A stretch of DNA of 16,035 nucleotides, taken from an uncultured Gemmatimonadota bacterium. GTDB taxonomy: Bacteria; Gemmatimonadota; Gemmatimonadetes; Gemmatimonadales; Gemmatimonadaceae. Location of the stretch: positions 1 through 16,035 of the forward strand of contig CAMLHT010000059.1 of NCBI GenBank assembly GCA_946479895.1. The letters run 5' to 3'. A model generated the notes under the pieces. That model saw only the letters and a program-made list of their open reading frames with translations, ran no database searches and was not told where the DNA came from. Shown piece by piece: positions 2,156 through 12,823 of this stretch (within the stretch, counting starts at the first letter, position 1; each line of letters opens with the position of its first letter). Position numbers and translations under genes: made by a program.

Positions 2156-2221
2156 TAGGAAAAACCCCGGTAATCCTCGGGAATTCCCCCATCGCAGGGC
2201 GCGGGCAGGCCGGCCTACCAT
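2156..2221 (+). promoter_or_regulatory. Promoter with tandem palindromic operator-like sites, upstream of the USP gene at 2245
   Basis: The distal site TAGGAAAAACCCCGG (2156-2170, centre 2163) and the proximal site TCGGGAATTCCCCCA (2177-2191, centre 2184) are 21 bp apart, on the same helical face. A candidate -10 TACCAT (2216-2221, in context GGCCTACCAT) starts 53 bp after the distal centre and 32 bp after the proximal one. The same 53-bp distance recurs at 3894-3959. Transcription would start near 2227-2229, giving a short leader containing GGAGG (2234-2238) before ATG 2245. The arrangement implies an activator bound at about -43 and -65. Confidence 0.6.
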
Positions 2222-2244
2222 GAAGCATCCACCGGAGGCCGGAG

Positions 2245-3192
2245 ATGTTCAGGAATATCATCGTCCCACTCGACACCTCCTCGCTCGCCGAGCAGGCGCT
2301 CGGCTCGGCGACGTCCATCGCGCGCGCGAGCGGCGCATCGATCGAGCTGCTGCTCATCCACACCGGGGTGTCCTACGACGGCATCTCCCACGGATCCGCG
2401 GCCGGCGCGCCCGAGGAGCACGTCTACGTCCAGGGCCTCGCGCAGGAGGTGGCCCACCGCTTCGGCATCACCGCGACCGGCCACGTCGAGCGCGGGATCC
2501 CCGTCGAATCGATCGTGCGCCGCGCCCGCACCGTCGGCGCCGACCTCATCGTCATGACGTCGCACGGGCGCACGGGCTTCAGCCGCGCCTGGCTGGGCAG
2601 CGTCGCCGATGGCGTGATCCGCGAATCGACGATCCCGGTCCTCATCGAGCGGCCCGTCGAGGGACGCCGGTGGCGCAGCACCGCCATGCAGCCGTTCCAC
2701 CGCATGCTGATCCCTCTCGACGGCACCGCGCTTTCGGCGGCGGTCCTCCAGCCGGCGATCGACCTGTGCCGCGGGATGGAGGCACGCCCGATCCTCACGC
2801 GCGTCGTCCTTCCCGTCACCATCGACGTCACCGACGCCGGCGTGCCGCTCTACCCGCCGCAGATCGTGGATCCCGAGCTGACGCGGCATTACGTGAACAA
2901 GGCGCAGGACGAGCTCACGGAGATCTCGCTCACGCTCGAAGCGGATGCGCGCGTGGAGGCCGAGACGGAGGTCGCGGTCGGCGAGAACGTGGCCGCCACG
3001 CTGATCGACGTGGCGAAGCGGCGCCGCGCGGACATCATCGCGATGTCTACGCATTCGCGCGGGCCGTCCCGCCTCCTGCTCGGCAGCGTCACCGACAAGG
3101 TGCTCCGGGGCACCAGCCTGCCGATCCTCGTGCTTCATCCGTCAGTCATCCCCGCCACGACGTCCCCGGCTGTCGCGCGACAGCACGCCTGA
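2245..3192 (+). CDS. Tandem-domain universal stress protein
   Basis: This 315-aa cytoplasmic protein has two UspA domains. Domain 1 (residues 1-140) starts FRNIIVPLDTSS and has the loop TSHG(105-108)-x9-G118-S119. Domain 2 (about 150-300) starts FHRMLIPLDG and has THS-RGPSRLLL-G280-S281. There the second motif Gly is missing and the loop is one residue short, so domain 2 may bind nucleotide differently or not at all. The start is ATG 2245, with GGAGG at 2234-2238. It is the first gene after the tandem-site promoter at 2156-2221. The hydrolase gene begins 9 bp after its stop, forming a two-gene operon. It is close in sequence style to the USP at 8771-9754 (MFRKLLIPLDGSSLAEEA against MFRNIIVPLDTSSLAEQA), so the two are probably paralogues. 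Confidence 0.94.
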   Translation: MFRNIIVPLDTSSLAEQALGSATSIARASGASIELLLIHTGVSYDGISHGSAAGAPEEHVYVQGLAQEVAHRFGITATGHVERGIPVESIVRRARTVGADLIVMTSHGRTGFSRAWLGSVADGVIRESTIPVLIERPVEGRRWRSTAMQPFHRMLIPLDGTALSAAVLQPAIDLCRGMEARPILTRVVLPVTIDVTDAGVPLYPPQIVDPELTRHYVNKAQDELTEISLTLEADARVEAETEVAVGENVAATLIDVAKRRRADIIAMSTHSRGPSRLLLGSVTDKVLRGTSLPILVLHPSVIPATTSPAVARQHA

Positions 3193-3201
3193 GCCACCTC
3201 G

Positions 3202-3888
3202 ATGAACCTGACAATCCATTCAGAGCGGGTGATCATCCCCGCCGGCGCCCGCCTCGAAGGAGACCTGGCGATTCCGGAGCATCCGCGCGGACTCATCGTG
3301 TTCGCGCACGGCAGCGGCAGCAGCCGCAACAGCCCGCGCAATCAGTGGGTCGCTGCTCAGCTCCAGGCCGACGCGTTCGCGACGCTGCTGTTCGACCTGC
3401 TCACGCCGCAGGAGGAGTCGTTCGACCAGCGCAGCGGCCGGCTGCGGTTCGACATCCCCTTCCTCGCCCGGCGGCTCATGGACGCGACGCGGTGGGTGCA
3501 CATGCAGGAGCCCCTGCGCACCACCGGCATCGGTCTCTTCGGGGCGAGCACGGGAGCCGCCGCCGCGCTGGTGGCCGCCGCCCGGATGCCGGACATCGTG
3601 CGGGCCGTCGTGTCCCGCGGCGGACGCGCCGACCTCGCCGGGGCGATGCTTCCGCGCGTCTTCGCGCCGACGCTGCTGATCGTCGGGGAGAAGGACCGGC
3701 CGGTGCTCGCCATGAACCGCGCGGCCCTCGAGGAGATCGGCGCCGAGGAGAAGGAGCTGAGGATCGTCCCGGGGGCGTCGCACCTCTTCGAGGAGCCCGG
3801 CACGCTGAGCCATGCGGCCATGCTCGCGCTGGGGTGGTTCGAGCGTCACGTCGCGATCGACACGACCGTTCCGTCGGATCGATACTGA
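3202..3888 (+). CDS. Alpha/beta hydrolase, dienelactone-hydrolase-like
   Basis: This 228-aa cytoplasmic hydrolase has a visible catalytic triad. The nucleophile is Ser116 in the elbow GASTG, the acid is Asp165 in GEKDRP, and His194 lies in GASHLF. HGSGSS at 36-41 forms the usual oxyanion region after strand 3. It resembles the dienelactone-hydrolase-like proteins that in other bacteria are fused to a phosphoribosyltransferase domain, as in M. tuberculosis Rv0571c (recalled, not searched). Here the phosphoribosyltransferase is a separate gene at 8103-8768. The substrate is unknown. The ATG at 3202 has only a weak ribosome-binding site and lies 9 bp after the USP stop, so translation is probably coupled to the USP gene. 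Confidence 0.88.
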   Translation: MNLTIHSERVIIPAGARLEGDLAIPEHPRGLIVFAHGSGSSRNSPRNQWVAAQLQADAFATLLFDLLTPQEESFDQRSGRLRFDIPFLARRLMDATRWVHMQEPLRTTGIGLFGASTGAAAALVAAARMPDIVRAVVSRGGRADLAGAMLPRVFAPTLLIVGEKDRPVLAMNRAALEEIGAEEKELRIVPGASHLFEEPGTLSHAAMLALGWFERHVAIDTTVPSDRY

Positions 3889-3893
3889 AGCGG

Positions 3894-3959
3894 TAGGGCA
3901 TTCCCCTATGCATATTCGGGCCTGAACCGACCGACGGCCGGCGTCGGCCCGGCTACCCT
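3894..3959 (+). promoter_or_regulatory. Promoter with tandem palindromic sites, upstream of the YceI-like gene
   Basis: A near-perfect palindrome TAGGGCATTCCCCTA (3894-3908, centre 3901) is followed 22 bp on by a weaker TCGG-N7-CCGA (3916-3930, centre 3923). A candidate -10 TACCCT (3954-3959, context CGGCTACCCTT) starts 53 bp from the first centre and 31 bp from the second. This is the same geometry and nearly the same core as the promoter at 2156-2221. The expected start of transcription coincides with the GTG codon at 3965, which implies a leaderless mRNA. Confidence 0.6.
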
Positions 3960-3964
3960 TCGAC

Positions 3965-4597
3965 GTGAGGATTGCCCAGATACCCCCGTCGTCCACACCT
4001 GCCGTGCTCGCCCTTGCCCTGCTGACCTTCGCCACGACCGCCGCCGCCCAGGGGCGTGACACCGTGCGCGTGGAGACCGGCCGCGGGAGCCGCGTGTGGA
4101 TCGAGGGCGGGTCGAACGTGGCGGACTGGGCATGCCGCGCCACGACCTTCGACGCACGGGTCGAGCTCGATGCGTCGCCTCCGCGCGCTGAATCCATGAC
4201 CGAGGGGATCCGGCGGGTGAGCGTCAGGCTGTCGGCCCGCGACCTCAAGTGCGGCAACCGCAAGATGGAGCACGACCTCTACACCGCTCTCAAGGCGAGC
4301 GACCCGGCGAAGCCTTCGTGGATCGTGGCCGCCTTCAATACGGTCGGTCATCCCTCCGCGGACACCGTGGATACCCAGGGTACCCTGCTCGTCGCCGGCG
4401 TCGAGAAGTACGTCGAGACGCGCATCACCACCGAGCGGCTGCCCGACGGGTCGCTCAAGGCTCGCGGAGCCGTGCCGCTCCTCATGACCGACTTCGGCAT
4501 CAAGCCGCCGGTCGGCCTCTTCGGCCTGATCCGCAGCAAGAACGAGATCGTGGTGAAGTTCGAGCTCGTCATCGGCGCGCGCGCGCAGACTCCATGA
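3965..4597 (+). CDS. YceI-family exported protein
   Basis: This is a 210-aa protein with a Sec signal peptide (hydrophobic 13-24, AxA-type cleavage near A28/Q29), so it acts in the periplasm or outside. The mature part has the YceI lipocalin-like pattern: an early G-x-S-N-V-x-W segment, a KMEHDLYTAL segment, a GTLLVAGVEKYVE strand and a C-terminal MTDFGIKPP turn. YceI proteins bind isoprenoid-type lipids and are often induced by stress; the ligand here is unknown. The GTG at 3965 is the only normal start codon between an in-frame TGA at 3923 and the signal peptide. It has no Shine-Dalgarno and lies 5 nt after the -10 hexamer, as expected for a leaderless transcript. Its last 29 bp overlap the convergent ppsA gene. 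Confidence 0.85.
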   Translation: MRIAQIPPSSTPAVLALALLTFATTAAAQGRDTVRVETGRGSRVWIEGGSNVADWACRATTFDARVELDASPPRAESMTEGIRRVSVRLSARDLKCGNRKMEHDLYTALKASDPAKPSWIVAAFNTVGHPSADTVDTQGTLLVAGVEKYVETRITTERLPDGSLKARGAVPLLMTDFGIKPPVGLFGLIRSKNEIVVKFELVIGARAQTP

Positions 4598-6944
4598 GCA
4601 GCCGCTGCTCGGCCCGCGCCACGTTGCGCCGCGCCTGATCGATCGCGTCGACGTTCACCGAGATCGAGTCTATCCCCCAGCGCACCAGGCGCTCGGCGTA
4701 CTCCGGATGCACCGACGGAGCCTGCCCGCAGATGGAGCAGGTCAGGCCGAGTGAATGGCTCGTCTCGATGATGAGCCGGATCGCTTCCAGCACGGCCGGA
4801 TCGCGCTCGTCATAGCCCGACCCGAACAGGTCGCTGTCGCGATCCACGCCGAGCATGAGCTGCGTCAGGTCGTTGGAGCCGATGGACACACCGTCGATTC
4901 CGAGCTTCGCGTAGGCGGGCAGGCTGTAGATCACCGAGGGGACTTCGGCCATGATCCAGCGCTGCATTCCACGATCCTGCCCGCAGGCGCTCTCGTCGAC
5001 GAGACGAAGGCACGTCTCGAGCTCCGCCGCCGTCCTCACGAACGGAATCATCAGGTGCAGGTTGTCGCGCTCCTTCCGCACCGCGGCGATGGCCGCCAGC
5101 TCCAGCGCGAAGAGATCGGGCTCTCGAACGTACCGCAGGCATCCGCGATAACCGATCATCGGGTTCGCTTCCACCGGCTCGTGCGTCTCGCCGCCGGCGA
5201 GGTTGCGGAACTCGTTCGACTTGAAGTCCGTCGCGCGATACACCACCGGGCGTGGATGGAATGCACGGGCGAAGACCATCAGCCGCTCGGCCAGGCGGGC
5301 CACGAGCTCCTCCGGCTTGTGCCGGCGAAGGAATTCACGCGGGTGCATCTGCTCGAGCGCGTCCCCGAGCATGAACTCCGCGCGCAGGAGGCCGACGCCG
5401 TCCACGTCCCGCGCGGCGATCTCCGCGGCGCGTTCGGGCTCGGCGAGGTTCACGTAGAGCCGCGTCGCGGTGATCGTCCCCGTTGTCGTCGCCGGTGCCG
5501 GCGCCGGGGCAGTCGCGGCCTGGACAGGTGCCGGCGCCTGGGCGCCGGCGAAGACTGAGCCGGTAGACCCGTCCACCGTCACCACGATGCCGTTCGCGAG
5601 CAGCTTCGTGGCCTCGTGCGCGCCGACGATGCACGGAACTCCCAGCTCACGCGCGACGATGGCCGCGTGGGACGTCATTCCGCCCGAGTCGGTCACGATC
5701 GCCGCCGCGCGCCGCATGATCGGCACCCAGTCCGGCGAGGTCATGCGCGTGACCAGCACGTCTCCCGCGCGAAGCGTTGATCCCTCGCCGGGCGACGTGA
5801 GCCTCCGCACCGGTCCCGACGCCTTGCCGGGGCTCGCGCCGAGGCCGTGGACGATGGGCTTCGCGGAAGCGCCCGAGGGCCCGGTCGCCGTCGCTGTCGC
5901 ATTGCCGGCGGGGGGCACCCCGGCGAGCGTCGTGATCGGACGGCTCTGGGTGAGGTAGATCTTCTCCCCCTCGATCGCGAACTCGAGGTCCTGTGGCACC
6001 CCGTAGTGCCGCTCGGCGCGGCGGGCGAGGTCGGCGAGCGCCCGCACTTCCTTCTCCGTCAGGACGGGAGCAGTGGATTGAGCGGTCCCCGCGAGATCGA
6101 CACGCACCGTTTCGCCCTTCGCTTCGTCCCAGCGGAGCAGGAACTCCTTTTCCATCACCCGCGTTTCCCGCGCGACGAGCGATTCCTTGTCGACGACGTG
6201 CCGGTCGGGCGTGACGGCGCCCTGCACCACCGATTCGCCGAGTCCCCAGGCAGCCTCGATGACCATGCGGGACGCGTCGCGCGTCGCCGGATCGGTCGTG
6301 AAGATGACTCCCGACTTGTCGGAGTCGACCATGCGCTGCACGACAACCGCCACCGGCATCTCCACCGGCATGCGCTGCTTGAGACGATAGAACAGCACGC
6401 GCGCGCCGAAGGTGGATGCCCAGCAGGCCTTCACCTTCTGCGCGAGGTCGTCGGCGCGCACGTTCAGGTAGCTCTCGAACATCCCGGCAAAGGAGAACTG
6501 CGCCGTATCCTCGGCCGTCGCCGAAGAGCGCACGGCCACGCGCGGCGACCGGGAACCGTGGACGAGGGCGGCGAACGCTTCGGCGATGTCGGCGCGAAGG
6601 GTCTCCGGCATCGGCGTCGCGTGCACCAGTGACTGAAGCGCGGCCGACACCCGGTCGAGCGCGGCCGGGTCGTCCGGGTCGAGGTTCGCCAGCTCCGCGG
6701 TCACGCGCGGTCCGAGCTTGTTCGCCTCGTAGAAGGCCCGGTAGCCGTCGATCGAGACGATGAATCCCGGGGGAATCGGCAGCCCGGCCGCCGTCATCTC
6801 ACCGAGATTGGCTCCCTTGCCGCCGACGCGCCCCACGTCGGAGCGGCGCGCCTCGGCAAACGGCACGATGACGCGCGGAGCGGGAGTACTGGAGGCGACC
6901 GCCGGTGCGGCGGCGTCACGCGTTGGCGAAACGGCGGTCGTCAT
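4569..6944 (-). CDS. ppsA: Phosphoenolpyruvate synthase
   Basis: This 791-aa enzyme is the length of E. coli PpsA. It makes PEP from pyruvate and ATP, releasing AMP and phosphate, and so opens gluconeogenesis. The N-terminal ATP-grasp domain starts with GGKGANLGEM (41-50) and has AVRSSATAEDT (137-147). The swivelling phosphohistidine domain carries His426 in GGMTSHAAIVARE. An Ala/Pro/Thr-rich linker (about 468-490) leads to the TIM-barrel PEP-binding domain, with RAEFML (521-526), ATDFKSNEFRNL, GSNDLTQL and the catalytic Cys739 in CSICGQAPS. It starts 4 bp after the stop of the OsmC-like gene, with GGAGGATGAA as its ribosome-binding site, so it is the second gene of that operon. Its presence among stress genes suggests metabolic rerouting in energy-limited cells. 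Confidence 0.96.
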   Translation of the reverse strand: MTTAVSPTRDAAAPAVASSTPAPRVIVPFAEARRSDVGRVGGKGANLGEMTAAGLPIPPGFIVSIDGYRAFYEANKLGPRVTAELANLDPDDPAALDRVSAALQSLVHATPMPETLRADIAEAFAALVHGSRSPRVAVRSSATAEDTAQFSFAGMFESYLNVRADDLAQKVKACWASTFGARVLFYRLKQRMPVEMPVAVVVQRMVDSDKSGVIFTTDPATRDASRMVIEAAWGLGESVVQGAVTPDRHVVDKESLVARETRVMEKEFLLRWDEAKGETVRVDLAGTAQSTAPVLTEKEVRALADLARRAERHYGVPQDLEFAIEGEKIYLTQSRPITTLAGVPPAGNATATATGPSGASAKPIVHGLGASPGKASGPVRRLTSPGEGSTLRAGDVLVTRMTSPDWVPIMRRAAAIVTDSGGMTSHAAIVARELGVPCIVGAHEATKLLANGIVVTVDGSTGSVFAGAQAPAPVQAATAPAPAPATTTGTITATRLYVNLAEPERAAEIAARDVDGVGLLRAEFMLGDALEQMHPREFLRRHKPEELVARLAERLMVFARAFHPRPVVYRATDFKSNEFRNLAGGETHEPVEANPMIGYRGCLRYVREPDLFALELAAIAAVRKERDNLHLMIPFVRTAAELETCLRLVDESACGQDRGMQRWIMAEVPSVIYSLPAYAKLGIDGVSIGSNDLTQLMLGVDRDSDLFGSGYDERDPAVLEAIRLIIETSHSLGLTCSICGQAPSVHPEYAERLVRWGIDSISVNVDAIDQARRNVARAEQRLLMESARARR

Positions 6945-6948
6945 CGCT

Positions 6949-7422
6949 TCATCCTCCGGCGACTCCGGCGACGGCCCGCGCGGGGAATTCCACTCCCACC
7001 TTCACCTCGGACCCATGCGCGAGCGTGTTGTGCGCCGGACAGACGCGCGCCACGGCTTCCAGCATCGGCCGGTAGACCTCCGGGATCTCGTCCGACAGCA
7101 CCACCTTCACCTCGAACTGCGCGATGCGATTGGGATTCTGCGCGCCGTGCTGCGCGACCTCGACGCGGAGCGATCCCGTCGGCAGGTGGCGCGCGACGAG
7201 GAACTGGTGGACGTAGAGCGCGACGCAGGTTCCGAGCGAGGCGCCGAGCAGCTCGATCGGCGCCGGGCCGGCGTCGTTGCCGCCGCCGCGCTCCGGCTGG
7301 TCGACGATCAGCGTGTGCGACCGGATCTGTGCCGCGAAGCGCAGCCCATCCTGGTGCGTGACGACGATGGCCTTCTTCGCCGGCCGCGGGCTGGAGTCGT
7401 TTGCTGCCGAATGGTCGATCAT
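6949..7422 (-). CDS. OsmC-like peroxiredoxin-family protein
   Basis: This is a 157-aa cytoplasmic protein of the OsmC/Ohr fold. The two conserved cysteines are visible: Cys66 in LGASLGTCVALY, at the start of the long helix, and Cys128 in ARVCPAHNTL. The family uses this pair to reduce hydroperoxides with thiol or lipoyl electron donors. The Pro-rather-than-Ser context of the second Cys (VCPAHNTL) fits the broader OsmC/YhfA-like branch more than Ohr. Specificity is therefore open. The ATG at 7422 has a weak Shine-Dalgarno; no better start is visible. It is the first gene of the osmC-ppsA operon, with a tandem-site promoter at 7468-7533 and a leader of about 40 nt. Confidence 0.88.
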   Translation of the reverse strand: MIDHSAANDSSPRPAKKAIVVTHQDGLRFAAQIRSHTLIVDQPERGGGNDAGPAPIELLGASLGTCVALYVHQFLVARHLPTGSLRVEVAQHGAQNPNRIAQFEVKVVLSDEIPEVYRPMLEAVARVCPAHNTLAHGSEVKVGVEFPARAVAGVAGG

Positions 7423-7467
7423 CGTGAGAGCGGGGAACGGTGTGGGAGGTGAATGGAGCCCACGGGA

Positions 7468-7533
7468 ATGAGAACGCCCGCGGCGCGCGAAAACCGTCGG
7501 GGAGCGGCCGTGGACCCGCCGGGGAATCGCCTA
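7468..7533 (-). promoter_or_regulatory. Promoter with tandem palindromic sites, upstream of the osmC-like/ppsA operon
   Basis: On the minus strand, TAGGCGATTCCCCGG (7533-7519, centre 7526) matches the sites at 2156 and 3894. A weaker site ACGGCCGCTCCCCGA (7511-7497, centre 7504) follows 22 bp downstream. The hexamer TCTCAT (7473-7468) begins exactly 53 and 31 bp from these centres, but it is a poor -10 box. The distal site is convincing; the -10 assignment rests on spacing. Confidence 0.5.
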
Positions 7534-7546
7534 CGGCGCCGTGTGT

Positions 7547-7612
7547 CAGGCATGGCCCGACAGTCCACGGGCAACCCGCACGACTTCGCGACGGGCCCCC
7601 GAGCCGCATCAT
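7547..7612 (+). promoter_or_regulatory. Possible weak promoter of the same class for the lipoprotein gene
   Basis: CAGGCATGGCCCGAC (7547-7561, centre 7554) keeps the AGG and CCC arms of the site family. The hexamer CATCAT (7607-7612) starts 53 bp from its centre. A perfect CGGG-CAA-CCCG lies between them at 7568-7578. The match is much weaker than at 2156 or 3894 and could be chance. The divergent osmC promoter is next to it. Confidence 0.25.
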
Positions 7613-7638
7613 GGACGCACTCATTCAGGAGTCTTCAG

Positions 7639-8139
7639 ATGCGCATCGGTGTCCTTGCAGCCAGCGCCGGGATCCTCGTGCTGGCAGCCTGCCAGTACAA
7701 GCCGACTCCGGTGGCCATCGCCGGCGACCCCGGCAGCATTCGCGCGCTCGCCGGCACCTGGTCCGGCACCTACCTCGGCACCGACACACGCCGCACCGGC
7801 AACATCACGTTCACCATCCGCGTCGACGGAGACAGCGCATTCGGGGACGTGCTGATGGAGCAGCCGCCAGGGGCGGCGAACCTGCTGCCGGCCGACGACC
7901 CGACCCTGCACCGCGCCCACGCGCGCAGCCCGCAGCTCCTCGCGGTGCGCTTCGTCGGCGTCATGGGTGGCGAGGTGTCCGGGGCGCTCGAGCCTTACGT
8001 CGCGCCCGACTGCGACTGCACCGTCCGCACGACCTTCACCGGCCGCGTTCGCGGCGACACGGTGAGCGGCACCTTCGAGACGCGGGCGCCGATGATCCCG
8101 GTTCAGACCGGCGTGTGGAGCGTCGTCCGGGAGCGCTGA
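7639..8139 (+). CDS. Small lipoprotein of unknown function
   Basis: This 166-aa protein has a typical lipoprotein signal: a short basic start, a hydrophobic core and the lipobox LAAC with Cys18 as the lipidated residue. It should be anchored in a membrane and face the periplasm or the outside. The mature part looks beta-rich, with a GTWSGTYLG start and repeated G-x-V-x-G-T strands, as in small lipocalin- or beta-barrel-like lipoproteins. A DCDC motif lies in the second half. I do not recognise the family. ATG 7639 is chosen because AGGAG lies just upstream and the signal peptide follows directly. An upstream in-frame extension lacks both. The last 37 bp overlap the convergent phosphoribosyltransferase gene. 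Confidence 0.78.
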   Translation: MRIGVLAASAGILVLAACQYKPTPVAIAGDPGSIRALAGTWSGTYLGTDTRRTGNITFTIRVDGDSAFGDVLMEQPPGAANLLPADDPTLHRAHARSPQLLAVRFVGVMGGEVSGALEPYVAPDCDCTVRTTFTGRVRGDTVSGTFETRAPMIPVQTGVWSVVRER

Positions 8140-8768
8140 GCGTTCGCGAGCAGCTGGCGCACCTCGTCGTCCGTGGTCTGCGCGAAGTCCTCGTACCACA
8201 TCCCGACGCCGTGAAAGGGCTCGGGTGCGACGACGCATGCCCAGTCGTCGGCGGCGTTGCGTATCAGGCTGAGCGCGTCGCGTGACGCCACGGGGACTGC
8301 CGCCGTGATGGACCGTGGCCCGAGCGCACGCAGCGCGCGGATGGCCACGAGCATCGAGGCGCCGGTCGCCATGCCGTCGTCGACCAGGATCACGGCGCGA
8401 TTGCGGAGGGCCTGCGCTTCGCCTCCCTCGCGATAGAGAGCCTCCCGCCGCGCCAGCTCACGGGACTCGTGGGCGATCGCCCGGTCGATCTCCGCGGGAG
8501 TGATGCCGAGCTTGTCCACGATCTCGTCGTTCATGACGATCGCGCCGCCGCTGGCAATCGCACCCATGGCCAGCTCCTCGTTGCCGGGCGTGCCGAGCTT
8601 GCGGACGAGGAAGATGTCCAGGGGCGCGTCGAGCGCGCGCGCCACTTCATGTGCCACCGGCACTCCACCGCGCGGCAGCGCCAGCACCACGGGATGCACG
8701 GTCGCGTAGGTGCGCAACAGTGCGCCGAGGGATCGTCCGGCCGCCCGGCGATTCCGGAATCGGGTCAT
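8103..8768 (-). CDS. Phosphoribosyltransferase-family protein
   Basis: This 221-aa protein is a type I phosphoribosyltransferase. The PRPP-binding loop is VILVDDGMATGAS at residues 126-138. An early LALPRGGVPVA (29-39) and IFLVRKLGTPGNEELAMGAI (52-71) form the rest of the site. Its closest known style is the stand-alone or fused PRTase domains found with dienelactone hydrolases or erythromycin esterases (Rv0571c and Rv2030c in M. tuberculosis). The true substrate of this group is not established. It starts 2 bp after the USP stop at 8771, with AGGAGG upstream, so it is the last gene of the DUF2892-USP-PRTase operon. It ends inside the convergent lipoprotein gene; there is no terminator between them. 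Confidence 0.9.
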   Translation of the reverse strand: MTRFRNRRAAGRSLGALLRTYATVHPVVLALPRGGVPVAHEVARALDAPLDIFLVRKLGTPGNEELAMGAIASGGAIVMNDEIVDKLGITPAEIDRAIAHESRELARREALYREGGEAQALRNRAVILVDDGMATGASMLVAIRALRALGPRSITAAVPVASRDALSLIRNAADDWACVVAPEPFHGVGMWYEDFAQTTDDEVRQLLANAQRSRTTLHTPV

Positions 8769-8770
8769 GG

Positions 8771-9754
8771 TCAGCCTCCTGATCCGGCGAGCGCCGGCAA
8801 CTGGCTGGTGATGCTCTCCTCGGTGAGCGGAACCGGCTTCACCGCCTTGCGTGGGTGCTCGATGAGCACCGGCACCTCGAGCTCGCGCCGCACCTTGTCG
8901 GCGACGCTGCCGATGAGCAGCCGCGACATCCCGCGTCCACGGGTCGTCATGGCGACGGCATCGACGTGCTGCGCGCGGGCGAAATCACAGATCGCCATCG
9001 CCACGGCGGGCGAGACGACGACCTGCCCGTCCACCGATGCCGCGCCGGCGCGGCGCAGCGTCTCCGCCGCCGTGGCCAGCTGCTGCTTCGATGCGGCGAC
9101 GAGCCCTTCCGTGGCCACGTCGTCCACGGCCGACGGCAGGTAGTTGAAGGGCATGCCGATGTCGAGCCCGACGAGGGCCACCGGCTGCACCACCTGGAGC
9201 AGCGTGATGCGGGCATTCGAGCAATGCGCGAGGTCGACCACCGGTCCGGCGATCTCCATGGCCGCCGGCGATCCGTCGAGCGGCACGAGGATGTGCTGGA
9301 AGAGGTGACGCATCGCCCGGCCGTCCTTCGCCGACTTCACGGGACGGAGCATGAGGACCGGCATGACCGCATGCCGGCTCACGGCATCGGCGACGCTGCC
9401 GATCCATGCCCTGCTCCACCCGGTCCGGCCGTGCGAGGTCATCACGATGAGATCCGCCGAGCCGTCGGTGGCCCGGTCACAGATGGCCTTCGCCGGATCG
9501 CCATTCACCACGGCGAAGGTCGTGGTGATCCCCGAGCCCGACGCCAGCTCCGCGGCGATGCCGCGCAGGTACCCGGTCTCCTCGGCCATCCGCTTCTTCG
9601 TCCACACGGGCTCTTCGCCACCGGCCGGATACGGCTCGTGGACCAGGACGAGGTCCATCCGCGCGTTCGACGCGATCGCGATCGCGGCCGCGCGGCCGAT
9701 CGCTTCCTCGGCGAGCGAGGACCCATCGAGCGGGATCAGCAGCTTCCTGAACAT
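8771..9754 (-). CDS. Tandem-domain universal stress protein
   Basis: This 327-aa cytoplasmic protein has two UspA domains. Domain 1 (1-140) starts FRKLLIPLDGSS with the loop TSHG (106-109), nine residues, G119-S120. Domain 2 (about 150-302) starts FQHILVPLDGSP with TTRG-RGMSRLLI-G282-S283; this loop is one residue short, as in the paralogue at 2245-3192. A C-terminal tail of about 25 residues follows the fold. ATG 9754 has a strong GAAGGAGGA ribosome-binding site overlapping the end of the upstream DUF2892 gene (15-bp gap). It is the middle gene of a three-gene operon. Its regulation is probably by the promoter at 10022-10087. Confidence 0.94.
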   Translation of the reverse strand: MFRKLLIPLDGSSLAEEAIGRAAAIAIASNARMDLVLVHEPYPAGGEEPVWTKKRMAEETGYLRGIAAELASGSGITTTFAVVNGDPAKAICDRATDGSADLIVMTSHGRTGWSRAWIGSVADAVSRHAVMPVLMLRPVKSAKDGRAMRHLFQHILVPLDGSPAAMEIAGPVVDLAHCSNARITLLQVVQPVALVGLDIGMPFNYLPSAVDDVATEGLVAASKQQLATAAETLRRAGAASVDGQVVVSPAVAMAICDFARAQHVDAVAMTTRGRGMSRLLIGSVADKVRRELEVPVLIEHPRKAVKPVPLTEESITSQLPALAGSGG

Positions 9755-9769
9755 GACGTCCTCCTTCAG

Positions 9770-9973
9770 CTAGGCCGGCAGCTGGCCTTTCGGCTTGCCC
9801 GTCGAGACGCCGAGCAGCCGATACATGGGGCAGTAGCCCGCGAGACCAGTGGCCAGCGGGATGAGTCCCAGCCATCCCCAGTTCGTGCGTGGTCCGACGA
9901 AGACCAGCGAGAGCAGGACGATGCCGGCGATCACCCGCAGCCAGCGATCGAGAGATCCGACGTTCACGCGCAT
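9770..9973 (-). CDS. Small DUF2892 (YgaP-like transmembrane) membrane protein
   Basis: This is a 67-aa inner-membrane protein. An amphipathic start with the family-like pattern N-V-G-x-x-D-R-W-L-R is followed by two hydrophobic segments (about 14-26 and 33-46). The conserved turn GYCPMYRLLGVST follows, as in the membrane part of YgaP rhodanese proteins (DUF2892, PF11127 from memory). There is no rhodanese domain here. The start is ATG 9973, with GGAGG about 6 nt upstream; longer in-frame extensions to 10225 lack a ribosome-binding site and family sequence. The single Cys could be redox- or sulfur-linked, but the function is unknown. It is the first gene of the operon, 15 bp before the USP gene. 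Confidence 0.87.
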   Translation of the reverse strand: MRVNVGSLDRWLRVIAGIVLLSLVFVGPRTNWGWLGLIPLATGLAGYCPMYRLLGVSTGKPKGQLPA

Positions 9974-10021
9974 TGGCGCCTCCAGTGGTTCGCGCCGCGG
10001 TGCGTCCGCGGGCGTTGTCGC

Positions 10022-10087
10022 ATAATCGGAGTCGTCTGGGCTCCAAACCGTCCTGCCGCGCCTGAATCTCTGTGCGGGAAACCCTCG
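10022..10087 (-). promoter_or_regulatory. Promoter of the DUF2892-USP-PRTase operon with a palindromic site
   Basis: On the minus strand, CGAGGGTTTCCCGCA (10087-10073) contains the perfect palindrome GGGTTTCCC centred at 10080. A good -10 hexamer GATTAT (10027-10022) starts exactly 53 bp downstream, matching the spacing at 2163 to 2216 and 3901 to 3954. The arms are one base closer than in the other sites, and no clear second palindrome is seen 21-22 bp downstream. Transcription would start near 10015, giving a leader of about 40 nt. Confidence 0.5.
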
Positions 10088-10203: not shown

Positions 10204-11583
10204 ATGACGACGGCAGTGGAATCACGGACCCTCGACGTCATCCGCCGGTACGCGCATCCGCTTACCGGGGACGCACACGACTTCGAGCCGGTGCTGCACC
10301 GGGTCGGCGACGCGCACCTCGTGCTCATCGGCGAGGCCTCGCATGGCACCCACGAGTTCTACCGCGTGCGGGCCGAGATCACCAAGCGCCTCATCCGCGA
10401 GAAGGGCTTCACGGCCGTCGCCGTCGAGGCCGACTGGCCCGACGCCTTCCGCATCAACCGGTACGTGCGGGGCCGGGGCGCCGACGCCGAAGCGAGCGAC
10501 GCGCTCGGGGGCTTCGAGCGGTTCCCGCAGTGGATGTGGCGGAATGCCGACGTGCTCGATTTCGTCGGATGGCTGCGGGCGTACAACGACGCCGTCACGC
10601 TGCCGCGCCTCAAGGCCGGCTTCTACGGCCTCGACGTGTACAGCCTGCAGGCGTCGATCGCCGCGGTGGTCGACTACCTGCGGGCGGTCGATCCGGACGC
10701 CGCGCAGGTGGCGGAGACGCGTTACAGCTGCTTCGACCCGTTCGCCGGCGACCCGGTGAAGTACGGGCTCGCCACCATCTCCGGCGAGCGCCTCTCCTGC
10801 GAGGCGGAAGTCGTCGCTCGGCTCATCGACCTGCGGGAGTCGGCGGCCGAATACGCGCGGCGGGACGGCCGGTTCGATCCGGACGCCGTCTTCTACGTCG
10901 AGCAGAACGCCCGGATCGTCCGCAACGCCGAGCGATACTACCGGGCGATGGTCCGCGGCGGCGCGGCTTCGTGGAACCTGCGGGACCGCCACATGGCCGG
11001 CACGCTCGAGGCGCTGCGCCATCACCTGCGCCAGGGCAGCAACGAGCCGAAGATCGTCGTGTGGGCGCACAACTCGCACCTCGGCGACGCCCGGTGGACC
11101 GAGATGTCCGCGCGCGGCGAGACCAACGTCGGCGAGCTCGTGCGCGTCCGGCATCCGCACGACGTCGTGAGCATCGGCTTCACGACGTTCAGCGGCACCG
11201 TGACCGCCGCGAACGACTGGGACAGGCCGGCGCGTCGCATGTGGGTCGTGCCGGCGCTCAACGGCAGCTACGAAGAGCTGCTCCACTCGGCGGTCGCTGG
11301 CGGGCAGGAGCCGGGCGCGCGGAACTTCATGCTCTCCTTCGACGCCGGCCATGCGACCCGCGACGAGCTGCTCCATGCGCTCGACGGTCCGATGCTCGAG
11401 CGCGCCATCGGCGTGATCTACCGGCCGGCGACGGAGCGGATGAGCCACTATTTCATGGCGTCGCTGTCGCGGCAGTTCGACATCGTCCTGCACTACGACG
11501 TGACGCGGGCCGTCGAGCCGCTGGAGCGGACCGTCCGCTGGGAGCGGGGCGAGGAGACCGAGACCTTCCCGTCAGGCCTCTGA
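10204..11583 (+). CDS. Erythromycin-esterase-family protein
   Basis: This is a 459-aa cytoplasmic protein of the EreA/EreB-like family (PF05139 from memory). The active-site signatures are visible: GEASHGTHEF at 43-52 (Glu44, His47), VEADWPD at 74-80 (Glu75), and VWAHNSHLGDAR with His289 and His292. Chromosomal members of this family are mostly not macrolide resistance enzymes. Many are fused to or neighbour phosphoribosyltransferases and sit in stress regulons, as M. tuberculosis Rv2030c does. The C-terminus ends ETFPSGL. The ATG at 10204 is preceded by GAGCGAG, a moderate ribosome-binding site. I found no convincing palindrome-type promoter in the plus direction. It converges on the CBS gene across a strong hairpin. 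A resistance role should not be assumed. Confidence 0.9.
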   Translation: MTTAVESRTLDVIRRYAHPLTGDAHDFEPVLHRVGDAHLVLIGEASHGTHEFYRVRAEITKRLIREKGFTAVAVEADWPDAFRINRYVRGRGADAEASDALGGFERFPQWMWRNADVLDFVGWLRAYNDAVTLPRLKAGFYGLDVYSLQASIAAVVDYLRAVDPDAAQVAETRYSCFDPFAGDPVKYGLATISGERLSCEAEVVARLIDLRESAAEYARRDGRFDPDAVFYVEQNARIVRNAERYYRAMVRGGAASWNLRDRHMAGTLEALRHHLRQGSNEPKIVVWAHNSHLGDARWTEMSARGETNVGELVRVRHPHDVVSIGFTTFSGTVTAANDWDRPARRMWVVPALNGSYEELLHSAVAGGQEPGARNFMLSFDAGHATRDELLHALDGPMLERAIGVIYRPATERMSHYFMASLSRQFDIVLHYDVTRAVEPLERTVRWERGEETETFPSGL

Positions 11584-12632: not shown

Positions 12633-12663
12633 TGTGACCTCCCTGATTTGTTGTGGCACGCCC

Positions 12664-12706
12664 ATAGTCGCCTGACCGGGGAAACCGTCAGTCGGGAGTT
12701 GCCCGC
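12664..12706 (-). promoter_or_regulatory. Probable hsp20 promoter with palindromic site
   Basis: On the minus strand the hexamer GACTAT (12669-12664) is a reasonable -10. A palindrome of the same type, GCGGGCAACTCCCGA (12706-12692, GGG-N5-CCC, centre 12699), is centred 30 bp upstream of it, close to the 31-32 bp of the proximal sites elsewhere. No distal partner is found 53 bp upstream. A second GG-TTT-CCCC sequence (12690-12676) lies between. Transcription would start near 12657. Confidence 0.4.
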
Positions 12707-12823
12707 CGCCATGTACGGACGACGATGTCAGTCACGGACGACCCTACAGCGCGTGGCCGGAATCCCGACTGGTGCGACCGCGGGATGCCCGCAGCTTGGA
12801 GCAGCCTCCTCGAGGATCGTCCC

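What the first reader, a model, noticed from the sequence alone, without database searches (positions are those of the whole stretch)
2156..10087. A recurring palindrome placed exactly 53 bp before candidate -10 boxes at four promoters
TAGGAAAAACCCCGG (2156), TAGGGCATTCCCCTA (3894), TAGGCGATTCCCCGG (7533, minus) and the shorter GGGTTTCCC site (centre 10080, minus) are each centred 53 bp upstream of TACCAT, TACCCT, TCTCAT and GATTAT. At the first three a second, weaker palindrome lies 21-22 bp downstream, in helical phase, about 31-32 bp before the -10. This looks like tandem sites for a NarL/LuxR-type response regulator, as with DosR boxes, but with its own sequence. The regulator is not in the window. 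I judged the matches by eye.
Basis: partly seen in the sequence, partly recalled or inferred. Interest (0 to 1): 0.88.

Follow-up and report, generated by a model that had tools for sequence, protein, structure and literature searches.

The report
Tandem regulator boxes before stress genes
The window carries short mirror-image DNA boxes set a fixed distance before stress-gene promoters; related soil bacteria have the same boxes, in helical phase, before stress genes, the gene for the enzyme that destroys nitrous oxide, and a conserved sensor-regulator gene pair that probably reads them.

Summary
The four palindromes lie where stated, each centre exactly 53 bp from the first base of a -10-like hexamer. 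A matrix from three window sites, scanned over 0.98 Mb of 41 Gemmatimonadaceae genomes, prefers intergenic DNA: 33 of the top 50 hits, 9.2 for permuted matrices. The refined box is GTC[A/G]GGGA-W-TCCC[T/C]GAC. Around 107 strong sites, 20 second boxes lie at exactly 22 bp (mean 0.65 per other offset). TANNNT peaks 53 bp downstream in relatives (7 of 111). The probable reader, not in the window, is a NarL-family response regulator matched in 142 of 179 family genomes, usually behind a short two-helix membrane kinase. Boxes gather before that operon: 23 upstream, 2 downstream of 30 regulator genes, though 15 loci show none. Clade II nosZ genes carry a box in 22 of 30 (permuted mean 1.8). Gene content resembles a DosR regulon; box and kinase differ. 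Against: whole-genome counts of the strict box do not exceed a scramble. Binding, signal and transcription starts are inferred, not shown.

The parts
2156..2170 (+). distal box, usp2 promoter (TAGGAAAAACCCCGG, centre 2163)
   Evidence: exact string; 10.7 bits under the matrix built from relatives
2177..2191 (+). proximal box, usp2 promoter (TCGGGAATTCCCCCA, centre 2184), 21 bp from the distal centre; strongest box of the window
   Evidence: 16.9 bits; not among the three seeds yet 15.4 bits with the seed matrix
2216..2221 (+). -10-like TACCAT, 53 bp from distal and 32 from proximal centre
2245..3192 (+). usp2, two-domain universal stress protein
   Evidence: Pfam PF00582, 1.2e-47
3202..3888 (+). 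alpha/beta hydrolase (DLH-like), probably in the usp2 operon
   Evidence: Pfam; 9-bp gap
3894..3908 (+). distal box, promoter of the 3965 gene (TAGGGCATTCCCCTA, centre 3901)
   Evidence: 15.2 bits
3916..3930 (+). weak half-site 22 bp downstream (TCGGGCCTGAACCGA)
   Evidence: -1.1 bits
3954..3959 (+). -10-like TACCCT, 53 bp from centre 3901
   Evidence: ends 5 bases before the GTG at 3965
3965..4597 (+). probably secreted protein of unknown family
   Evidence: no Pfam hit; homologs at 30-40% identity in stress clusters of relatives
7519..7533 (-). distal box, osmC-ppsA promoter (TAGGCGATTCCCCGG, centre 7526)
   Evidence: 11.1 bits
7497..7511 (-). weak half-site 22 bp downstream (ACGGCCGCTCCCCGA on the minus strand, centre 7504)
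   Evidence: -0.6 bits
7468..7473 (-). -10-like TCTCAT, 53 bp from centre 7526
6949..7422 (-). OsmC-like protein, first gene after site 3
   Evidence: Pfam PF02566
4569..6944 (-). phosphoenolpyruvate-synthase-like protein
   Evidence: Pfam PPDK_N and PEP-utilizers
10076..10084 (-). weak box core GGGTTTCCC (centre 10080)
   Evidence: 8.8 bits for the 15-mer
10022..10027 (-). -10-like GATTAT, 53 bp from centre 10080
9770..9973 (-). YgaP-like membrane protein, first gene after site 4
   Evidence: Pfam PF11127
8771..9754 (-). usp3, two-domain universal stress protein
   Evidence: Pfam PF00582
8103..8768 (-). phosphoribosyltransferase
   Evidence: Pfam PF00156

Best explanation
The palindromes are operator boxes of a two-component system that is conserved across Gemmatimonadaceae. 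A short membrane histidine kinase (two hydrophobic helices with almost no loop, HAMP-like segment in several, HisKA_3) is inferred to phosphorylate a NarL-family response regulator. Dimers of the regulator would bind 15-bp boxes (TCRGGGA-W-TCCCYGA, or TAGGG...CCCTA variants) stacked every 22 bp on one face of the helix. The promoter-proximal box sits about 31 bp before the -10 (about -42.5 from the start, overlapping the -35) and further boxes 53 and 75 bp before it, so the regulator would recruit RNA polymerase to promoters lacking a good -35. In the window it would switch on universal stress proteins, OsmC-PEP synthase, a phosphoribosyltransferase operon and a probably secreted protein; in relatives also clade II nosZ, PEP synthase, 2-oxoacid oxidoreductase, sigma factors and its own operon. 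The likely occasion is oxygen loss or an energy or redox change felt in the membrane. Shown by sequence: box, spacing, intergenic placement, -10 register, association with the kinase-regulator operon and nosZ. Inferred: binding, phosphorylation, activation rather than repression, and the signal.
For: Seed matrix from three window sites: 33 of top 50 hits in relatives intergenic, permuted mean 9.2, 2 of 300 permutations as high. Refined matrix: 97 of 119 positions of 12 bits or more intergenic, background 14%. Spacing: around 107 strong sites (window's included) 20 second sites at exactly 22 bp, 2 each at 21 and 23, mean 0.65 and maximum 4 at the 60 other offsets from 8 to 70. Partly independent promoter set (nosZ and kinase-regulator; 25 of 30 and 13 of 30 fetched loci given): second sites of 0 bits or more at +22 in 11 of 31 promoters, +44 and +45 in 6 each, +21, +23 and +34 in 5 each. 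-10: TANNNT at +53 in 7 of 111 site-gene pairs of relatives, binomial p 6e-6 before correction for about 80 offsets; at +75 in 7 of 45 sites of the nosZ/regulator set. Regulator: matched in 142 of 179 genomes; 23 sites upstream against 2 downstream of 30 regulator genes; 10 of 48 listed strict-consensus places within 10 kb of it, all upstream, 0 of 34 listed scramble-only places. nosZ: 22 of 30 with a box within 450 bp upstream. Closest solved structures are NarL and DevR/DosR.
Against: The window holds no regulator and its own genome is not held, so the link is by relatives only, with PEP synthase at most 66-72% identical. Whole-genome counts of the strict consensus do not exceed a scrambled palindrome (112 against 108 of 179 genomes with a match). 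15 of 30 regulator loci showed no box of 10 bits within the DNA held upstream (at most 1.5 kb). Some genomes with boxes gave no regulator at E <= 1e-70 (G104 is listed without a match, G161 is not among the matched), perhaps because assemblies are incomplete. Window sites 2-4 have weak or no second boxes. In the nosZ and regulator set the +53 peak is weak (2 of 45); the -10 there fits +75 better. Universal stress protein enrichment downstream of boxes is only twofold over controls from the same loci (22 of 99 against 11 of 100). Outside the family the upstream excess is small (12 against 4). Paralogous regulators were not tested as controls.
Confidence: 0.77

Rival explanations
1. The boxes are real and read by a LuxR/NarL-type dimer, but a paralogous response regulator is the true reader; the conserved pair is merely one of its targets.
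For: Genomes hold many response-regulator-like candidates (16-167 first-look candidates in the genomes listed). A kinase-regulator operon can be a downstream target. Half of the 30 regulator loci lack a box in the DNA held upstream.
Against: The pair is family-wide and mostly single at E <= 1e-70; 10 of 48 listed strict sites lie upstream of it within 7 kb, as autoregulation would give. Paralogs were not tested.
Confidence: 0.15
2. Chance: by-eye palindromes in a GC-rich window with loosely chosen -10 boxes.
For: TAGG-N5-CCCC alone is expected about 1.3 times (my estimate); the -10 boxes are weak; whole-genome strict matches are no commoner than for a scramble.
Against: Intergenic enrichment in other genomes from window-only seeds, the 22-bp spike, the +53 peak in relatives, nosZ.
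Confidence: 0.02
3. The boxes belong to a CRP/FNR-family regulator, which also uses dyads and controls anaerobic genes.
For: Targets such as nosZ and 2-oxoacid oxidoreductase would suit FNR; a site at -42.5 is a class II position (recalled).
Against: The box is a 15-bp dyad with one central W and GGGA/TCCC arms, not TTGAT-N4-ATCAA (recalled), and occurs in 22-bp stacks.
Confidence: 0.04
4. The boxes bind a repressor or the unphosphorylated regulator; arrays block RNA polymerase and are released by the signal.
For: Placement alone does not tell activation from repression; the proximal box overlaps the -35.
Against: Boxes at fixed distances upstream of the -10 are the pattern of activator-dependent promoters (inference; the -35 was not scored).
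Confidence: 0.08

Closest known systems
DosR/DevR regulon of mycobacteria
   Same: NarL-family regulator; two or more close-packed sites, the start-proximal one overlapping the -35, autoregulation (passages seen in PMC3029386). Gene content: universal stress proteins, Hsp20, CBS, phosphoribosyltransferase, erythromycin-esterase family, PEP synthase, baeRF (the DosR gene list is recalled).
   Different: The DosR box is a longer dyad (about 20 bp, recalled) with GGG and CCC arms further apart; its kinases DosS/DosT have GAF domains (recalled), whereas Pfam reported no GAF in the five partner kinases scanned here. nosZ is among the targets here.
NreBC of Staphylococcus
   Same: Kinase with a response regulator that binds a GC-rich palindrome and turns on anaerobic respiration genes (passages seen in PMC8139620 and PMC5694512); the recalled half-site TAGGG matches.
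   Different: NreB senses oxygen with an Fe-S cluster (same passages); the kinases here are short two-helix membrane proteins with no PAS domain reported. The recalled NreC dyad has a 4-bp centre, here 5.
LiaRS / VraRS
   Same: Kinase layout: two helices with a short loop, HAMP-like segment, HisKA_3; NCBIfam LiaS matches below its cut-off; VraR among the closest structures.
   Different: Targets are stress proteins and N2O reductase, not envelope genes (recalled); below the LiaS family cut-off.
NarXL
   Same: NarL is the closest solved structure.
   Different: The NarL heptamer (TACYYMT, recalled) differs; the L130 regulator is below the NarL cut-off (148.9 of 250 bits).

Membership tests
NarL/FixJ (LuxR-type) response regulator regulon | regulator with receiver and LuxR-type HTH domains | tested here: met
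   near full-length matches to NarL, DevR and VraR structures and to NarL/UvrY-type NCBIfam models, all below equivalog cut-offs
NarL/FixJ (LuxR-type) response regulator regulon | regulator shown to bind the box | not testable with these tools
   only genomic association:
NarL/FixJ (LuxR-type) response regulator regulon | short dyads in helical phase upstream of -10 | tested here: met
   22-bp spike, -10 at +31/+53/+75
DosR regulon | DosR box (about 20-bp dyad, arms recalled) | tested here: not met
   15-bp dyad with one central base; columns beyond +-8 nearly uninformative
DosR regulon | GAF-type sensor kinase partner | tested here: not met
   no GAF in the five partner kinases scanned; two-helix N-terminus. 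PAS-GAF kinases do lie next door in L175 and L135
DosR regulon | gene content (Usp, Hsp20, CBS, phosphoribosyltransferase and others) | tested here: met
   the reference list is recalled, and Hsp20, CBS and esterase genes of the window have only weak boxes
DosR regulon | induction by hypoxia | not testable with these tools
   nosZ as a target is suggestive only
NreBC | oxygen-sensing Fe-S kinase | tested here: inconclusive
   membrane kinases without a reported cytoplasmic sensor domain; cysteine clusters were not examined
LiaRS/VraRS | equivalog score for the kinase | tested here: not met
   LiaS 91.3 and 70.1 of 450 bits in two kinases

The most novel reading that the evidence does not exclude
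A previously undescribed two-component system, family-wide in Gemmatimonadaceae and perhaps traceable in other members of the class, senses the state of the membrane or respiratory chain through a kinase with no separate sensor domain, and through 22-bp-phased box arrays jointly switches on clade II N2O reductase and a DosR-like survival set: one switch linking dormancy to a major soil N2O sink.
Probability: 0.5. Interest if true: 0.8.

Novelty: new variant of a known kind. Interest (0 to 1): 0.63.

Why it matters
My searches found no description of what switches it on (in an open-licence library only). The box, its spacing rule and a named kinase-regulator pair make that directly testable and give a promoter grammar for a poorly studied phylum. 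It also shows a DosR-like regulon layout outside actinobacteria, with a different box and a different kind of kinase.

Tried and rejected
Exact window strings (TAGG-N5..7-CCCC) in the ten closest PEP-synthase loci gave scattered hits that I did not pursue; a matrix and upstream regions of homologs were needed to see the motif. The first look at upstream regions ignored that the genome search does not turn minus-strand loci; 13 loci were redone. A strict IUPAC consensus over 179 whole genomes gave no excess of genomes with a match over a scrambled palindrome; the scramble shares some matches (TCGGGG...CCCCGA), and three genomes (G061, G065, G071) carry a repeat-like TCGGGGCAGCCCCGA that I left out. 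The place listings are capped and end near G070, so the 48 and 34 places are only those listed; the regulator places used there were typed from the capped listing. Eight relative genomes and one further locus were dropped before because my simple gene caller covered under 75% of them. For some searches I gave 25 of the 30 nosZ loci and 13 of the 30 regulator loci (13 of the 15 with a box); for, 26 of the 30 loci fetched. I first took two 634-residue genes as nosZ; one search showed 2-oxoacid oxidoreductases, and one search found the true nosZ genes. CRP/FNR and chance are ranked low. Rfam, fold prediction and the large protein search were not used. Literature: ten searches used; no paper on such a regulon found with the terms.
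Full report
What is there. The window (16,035 bp, 70% GC) encodes five universal stress protein genes (one cut by the edge), an alpha/beta hydrolase, a PEP-synthase-like protein, OsmC, a phosphoribosyltransferase, a YgaP-like protein, an erythromycin-esterase-family protein, a CBS protein, Hsp20, a baeRF protein, an AAA_28 protein and the end of an HlyD-type protein. No whole genome is held for it. Its PEP synthase is closest to Gemmatimonadaceae assemblies (66% best segment; 67-70%, and 72% for a fragment), so the source is probably a member or neighbour of that family.

The observation. All four palindromes and -10-like hexamers are where stated, and centre-to-hexamer distance is 53 in each. 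The hexamers have 4, 3, 4 and 4 matches to TATAAT; 3 or more occurs at 3.9% of window positions. Frequency of the string alone is not remarkable; placement is. At site 1 the promoter-proximal palindrome, 21 bp on, is the strongest of the window; at sites 2 and 3 the second element is only a half-site, and site 4 is weak.

Test in other genomes. From loci chosen for universal stress protein or PEP synthase homologs I fetched regions and called genes with a simple codon model. A symmetric matrix made only from the three window sites was scanned over 980,814 bp of 41 relative genomes; loci with under 75% gene coverage were dropped first. Of the top 50 hits 33 were intergenic (background 14%); 300 column-permuted matrices gave 9.2 on average, and 2 of 300 reached the observed number. 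A first pass on 14 relative genomes gave 75 of 168 top hits intergenic, 25.5 expected. Iterating gave 164 intergenic sites in 36 genomes and the box GTC[A/G]GGGA-W-TCCC[T/C]GAC; at 12 bits or more 97 of 119 positions are intergenic.

Spacing. Around 107 strong intergenic sites (the window's included), second sites of 6 bits or more number 20 at exactly 22 bp, 2 each at 21 and 23, and on average 0.65 (maximum 4) at the 60 other offsets between 8 and 70. The training did not use spacing. In promoters of nosZ and of the kinase-regulator operon (25 of 30 and 13 of 30 fetched loci given; 31 with a box of 10 bits), second sites of 0 bits or more occur at +22 in 11, at +44 and +45 in 6 each, at +21, +23 and +34 in 5 each; half-sites at +22 in 9 and +44 and +45 in 6 each, mean 0.56 per offset. 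This is a stacked array with two helical turns per step.

The -10. For 47 tandem pairs aligned on the proximal box, A at +32 and T at +36 each reach 0.55 (both gene directions at divergent promoters, and one window site, included). For 117 site-gene pairs of 31 relative genomes, TANNNT peaks at +53 (7 of 111), with 3 at +52, 3 at +31, 4 at +32 and also 4 at +22; background 0.6%. The +53 p value, 6e-6, is before correction for about 80 offsets. In the nosZ and regulator promoters the peak is at +75 (7 of 45) and +76 (5), with 3 at +31 and only 2 at +53.

The regulator. A NarL-type response regulator is transcribed away from a universal stress gene with a tandem box between them in genome G171 (L130 11531-12217). 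Relatives in eight loci form alignment A1, 50-58% identical to it. The family model matches 142 of 179 Gemmatimonadaceae genomes at 1e-70, most of them once. In 28 of 30 fetched loci a gene of the length and layout of a kinase directly precedes it (one contig gave no such frame, and one has a multicopper oxidase there); 26 of the 28 show two or more hydrophobic stretches close together. Kinase domains were confirmed for six: Pfam finds HisKA_3 in five of five scanned, HATPase_c in four, HAMP in three (two of these just under the Pfam cut-off), and no PAS or GAF; NCBIfam matches a sixth to kinase models (L228). Boxes of 10 bits or more: 23 in 43.7 kb upstream, 2 in 44.0 kb downstream of the regulator; 20 of the 23 lie 1.17-1.40 kb upstream, which is just before the kinase gene. 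15 of the 30 loci have at least one and 15 have none in the DNA held; two of the 15 with a box (G171, G174) had contributed to the matrix. In L161 a laccase-like multicopper oxidase gene precedes the kinase, with a box before it; such longer operons may explain some misses, but I did not test this. The number of genomes with a match is no higher than for the scramble (112 against 108 of 179).

Targets. Of 99 genes downstream of boxes, 22 are universal stress proteins, against 11 of 100 control genes from the same loci; six have sigma-70 regions, five are PEP-synthase type, four have receiver domains, none of which is in the 25 families listed for the controls. The loci were chosen by stress and PEP-synthase genes, so those numbers are biased. 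NCBIfam identified clade II nosZ behind a tandem box in G174 and behind a box in G119. Testing nosZ separately: 84 of 179 genomes have a match at 1e-100; of the 30 loci fetched, 22 have a box of 10 bits or more within 450 bp upstream (less was held for two), mostly 45-120 bp before the start as judged from the alignment; permuted matrices average 1.8, maximum 12, and 0 of 100 reach 22. Two of the 30 (G174, G119) had contributed to the matrix, and two others show the same upstream sites. Three of the 48 strict places also fall about 140-155 bp before the matched start of a nosZ (compare).

Outside the family. In 40 genomes of the wider class, 24 have an A1 match at 1e-50; in the 26 loci I scanned (of 30 fetched), boxes number 12 upstream and 4 downstream of it, six of them 1.07-1.21 kb upstream: a weak but similar trend.

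How it works, most likely. Dimers of the phosphorylated regulator bind the dyads, stack every 22 bp, and hold RNA polymerase from a proximal position near -42.5. That matches DevR/DosR practice: several close-packed sites, the start-proximal one over the -35, cooperative binding and autoregulation (passages in PMC3029386). It works like DosR but is not DosR: the box and the kinase differ. NreBC is a second functional parallel (passages in PMC8139620 and PMC5694512). The signal is unknown; a kinase with no separate sensor domain suggests membrane or respiratory-chain sensing, and nosZ suggests oxygen loss (N2O reduction by G. aurantiaca follows O2 depletion; passage in PMC9530729).

Open tensions. 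At site 2 the hexamer ends 5 bases before the GTG, so the transcript would be leaderless if that start is right. Hsp20, CBS and the esterase in the window have at best weak boxes.

Noticed in passing
window 12633-12823: Divergent hsp20/baeRF promoter region holds a weak box (centre 12699, 7.9 bits) with GACTAT 30 bp downstream on the minus strand, towards hsp20: a possible fifth promoter of the set.
   Followed up: partly
window 7553 and 10118: Further boxes (10.8 and 9.4 bits) before the lipoprotein-like gene at 7639 and the erythromycin-esterase gene at 10204, without a TATAAT-like hexamer at +53 for the first and with CAGACT for the second.
   Followed up: partly
L161 9041-10120; L238 374-1489: A laccase-like multicopper oxidase gene precedes the kinase-regulator pair (L161) or the regulator directly (L238); out-of-frame traces suggest the same in several other loci.
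   Followed up: partly
G061, G065, G071 (places): TCGGGGCAGCCCCGA is repeated, 10-14 matches of the pattern per genome, in three genomes; probably unrelated to the box.
   Followed up: no
L175 1238-2860, L135 13359-14957: PAS-GAF-HisKA kinases lie next to the kinase-regulator pair across a boxed promoter; a second sensor input is possible.
   Followed up: no
window 3954-3965: If the TACCCT -10 is right, the gene at 3965 would be transcribed leaderless from its GTG.
   Followed up: no
L013 19351-19956, L014 20559-21164: The two Mycolicibacterium PEP-synthase loci also carry a NarL-type regulator 34-35% identical to the G171 one.
   Followed up: no
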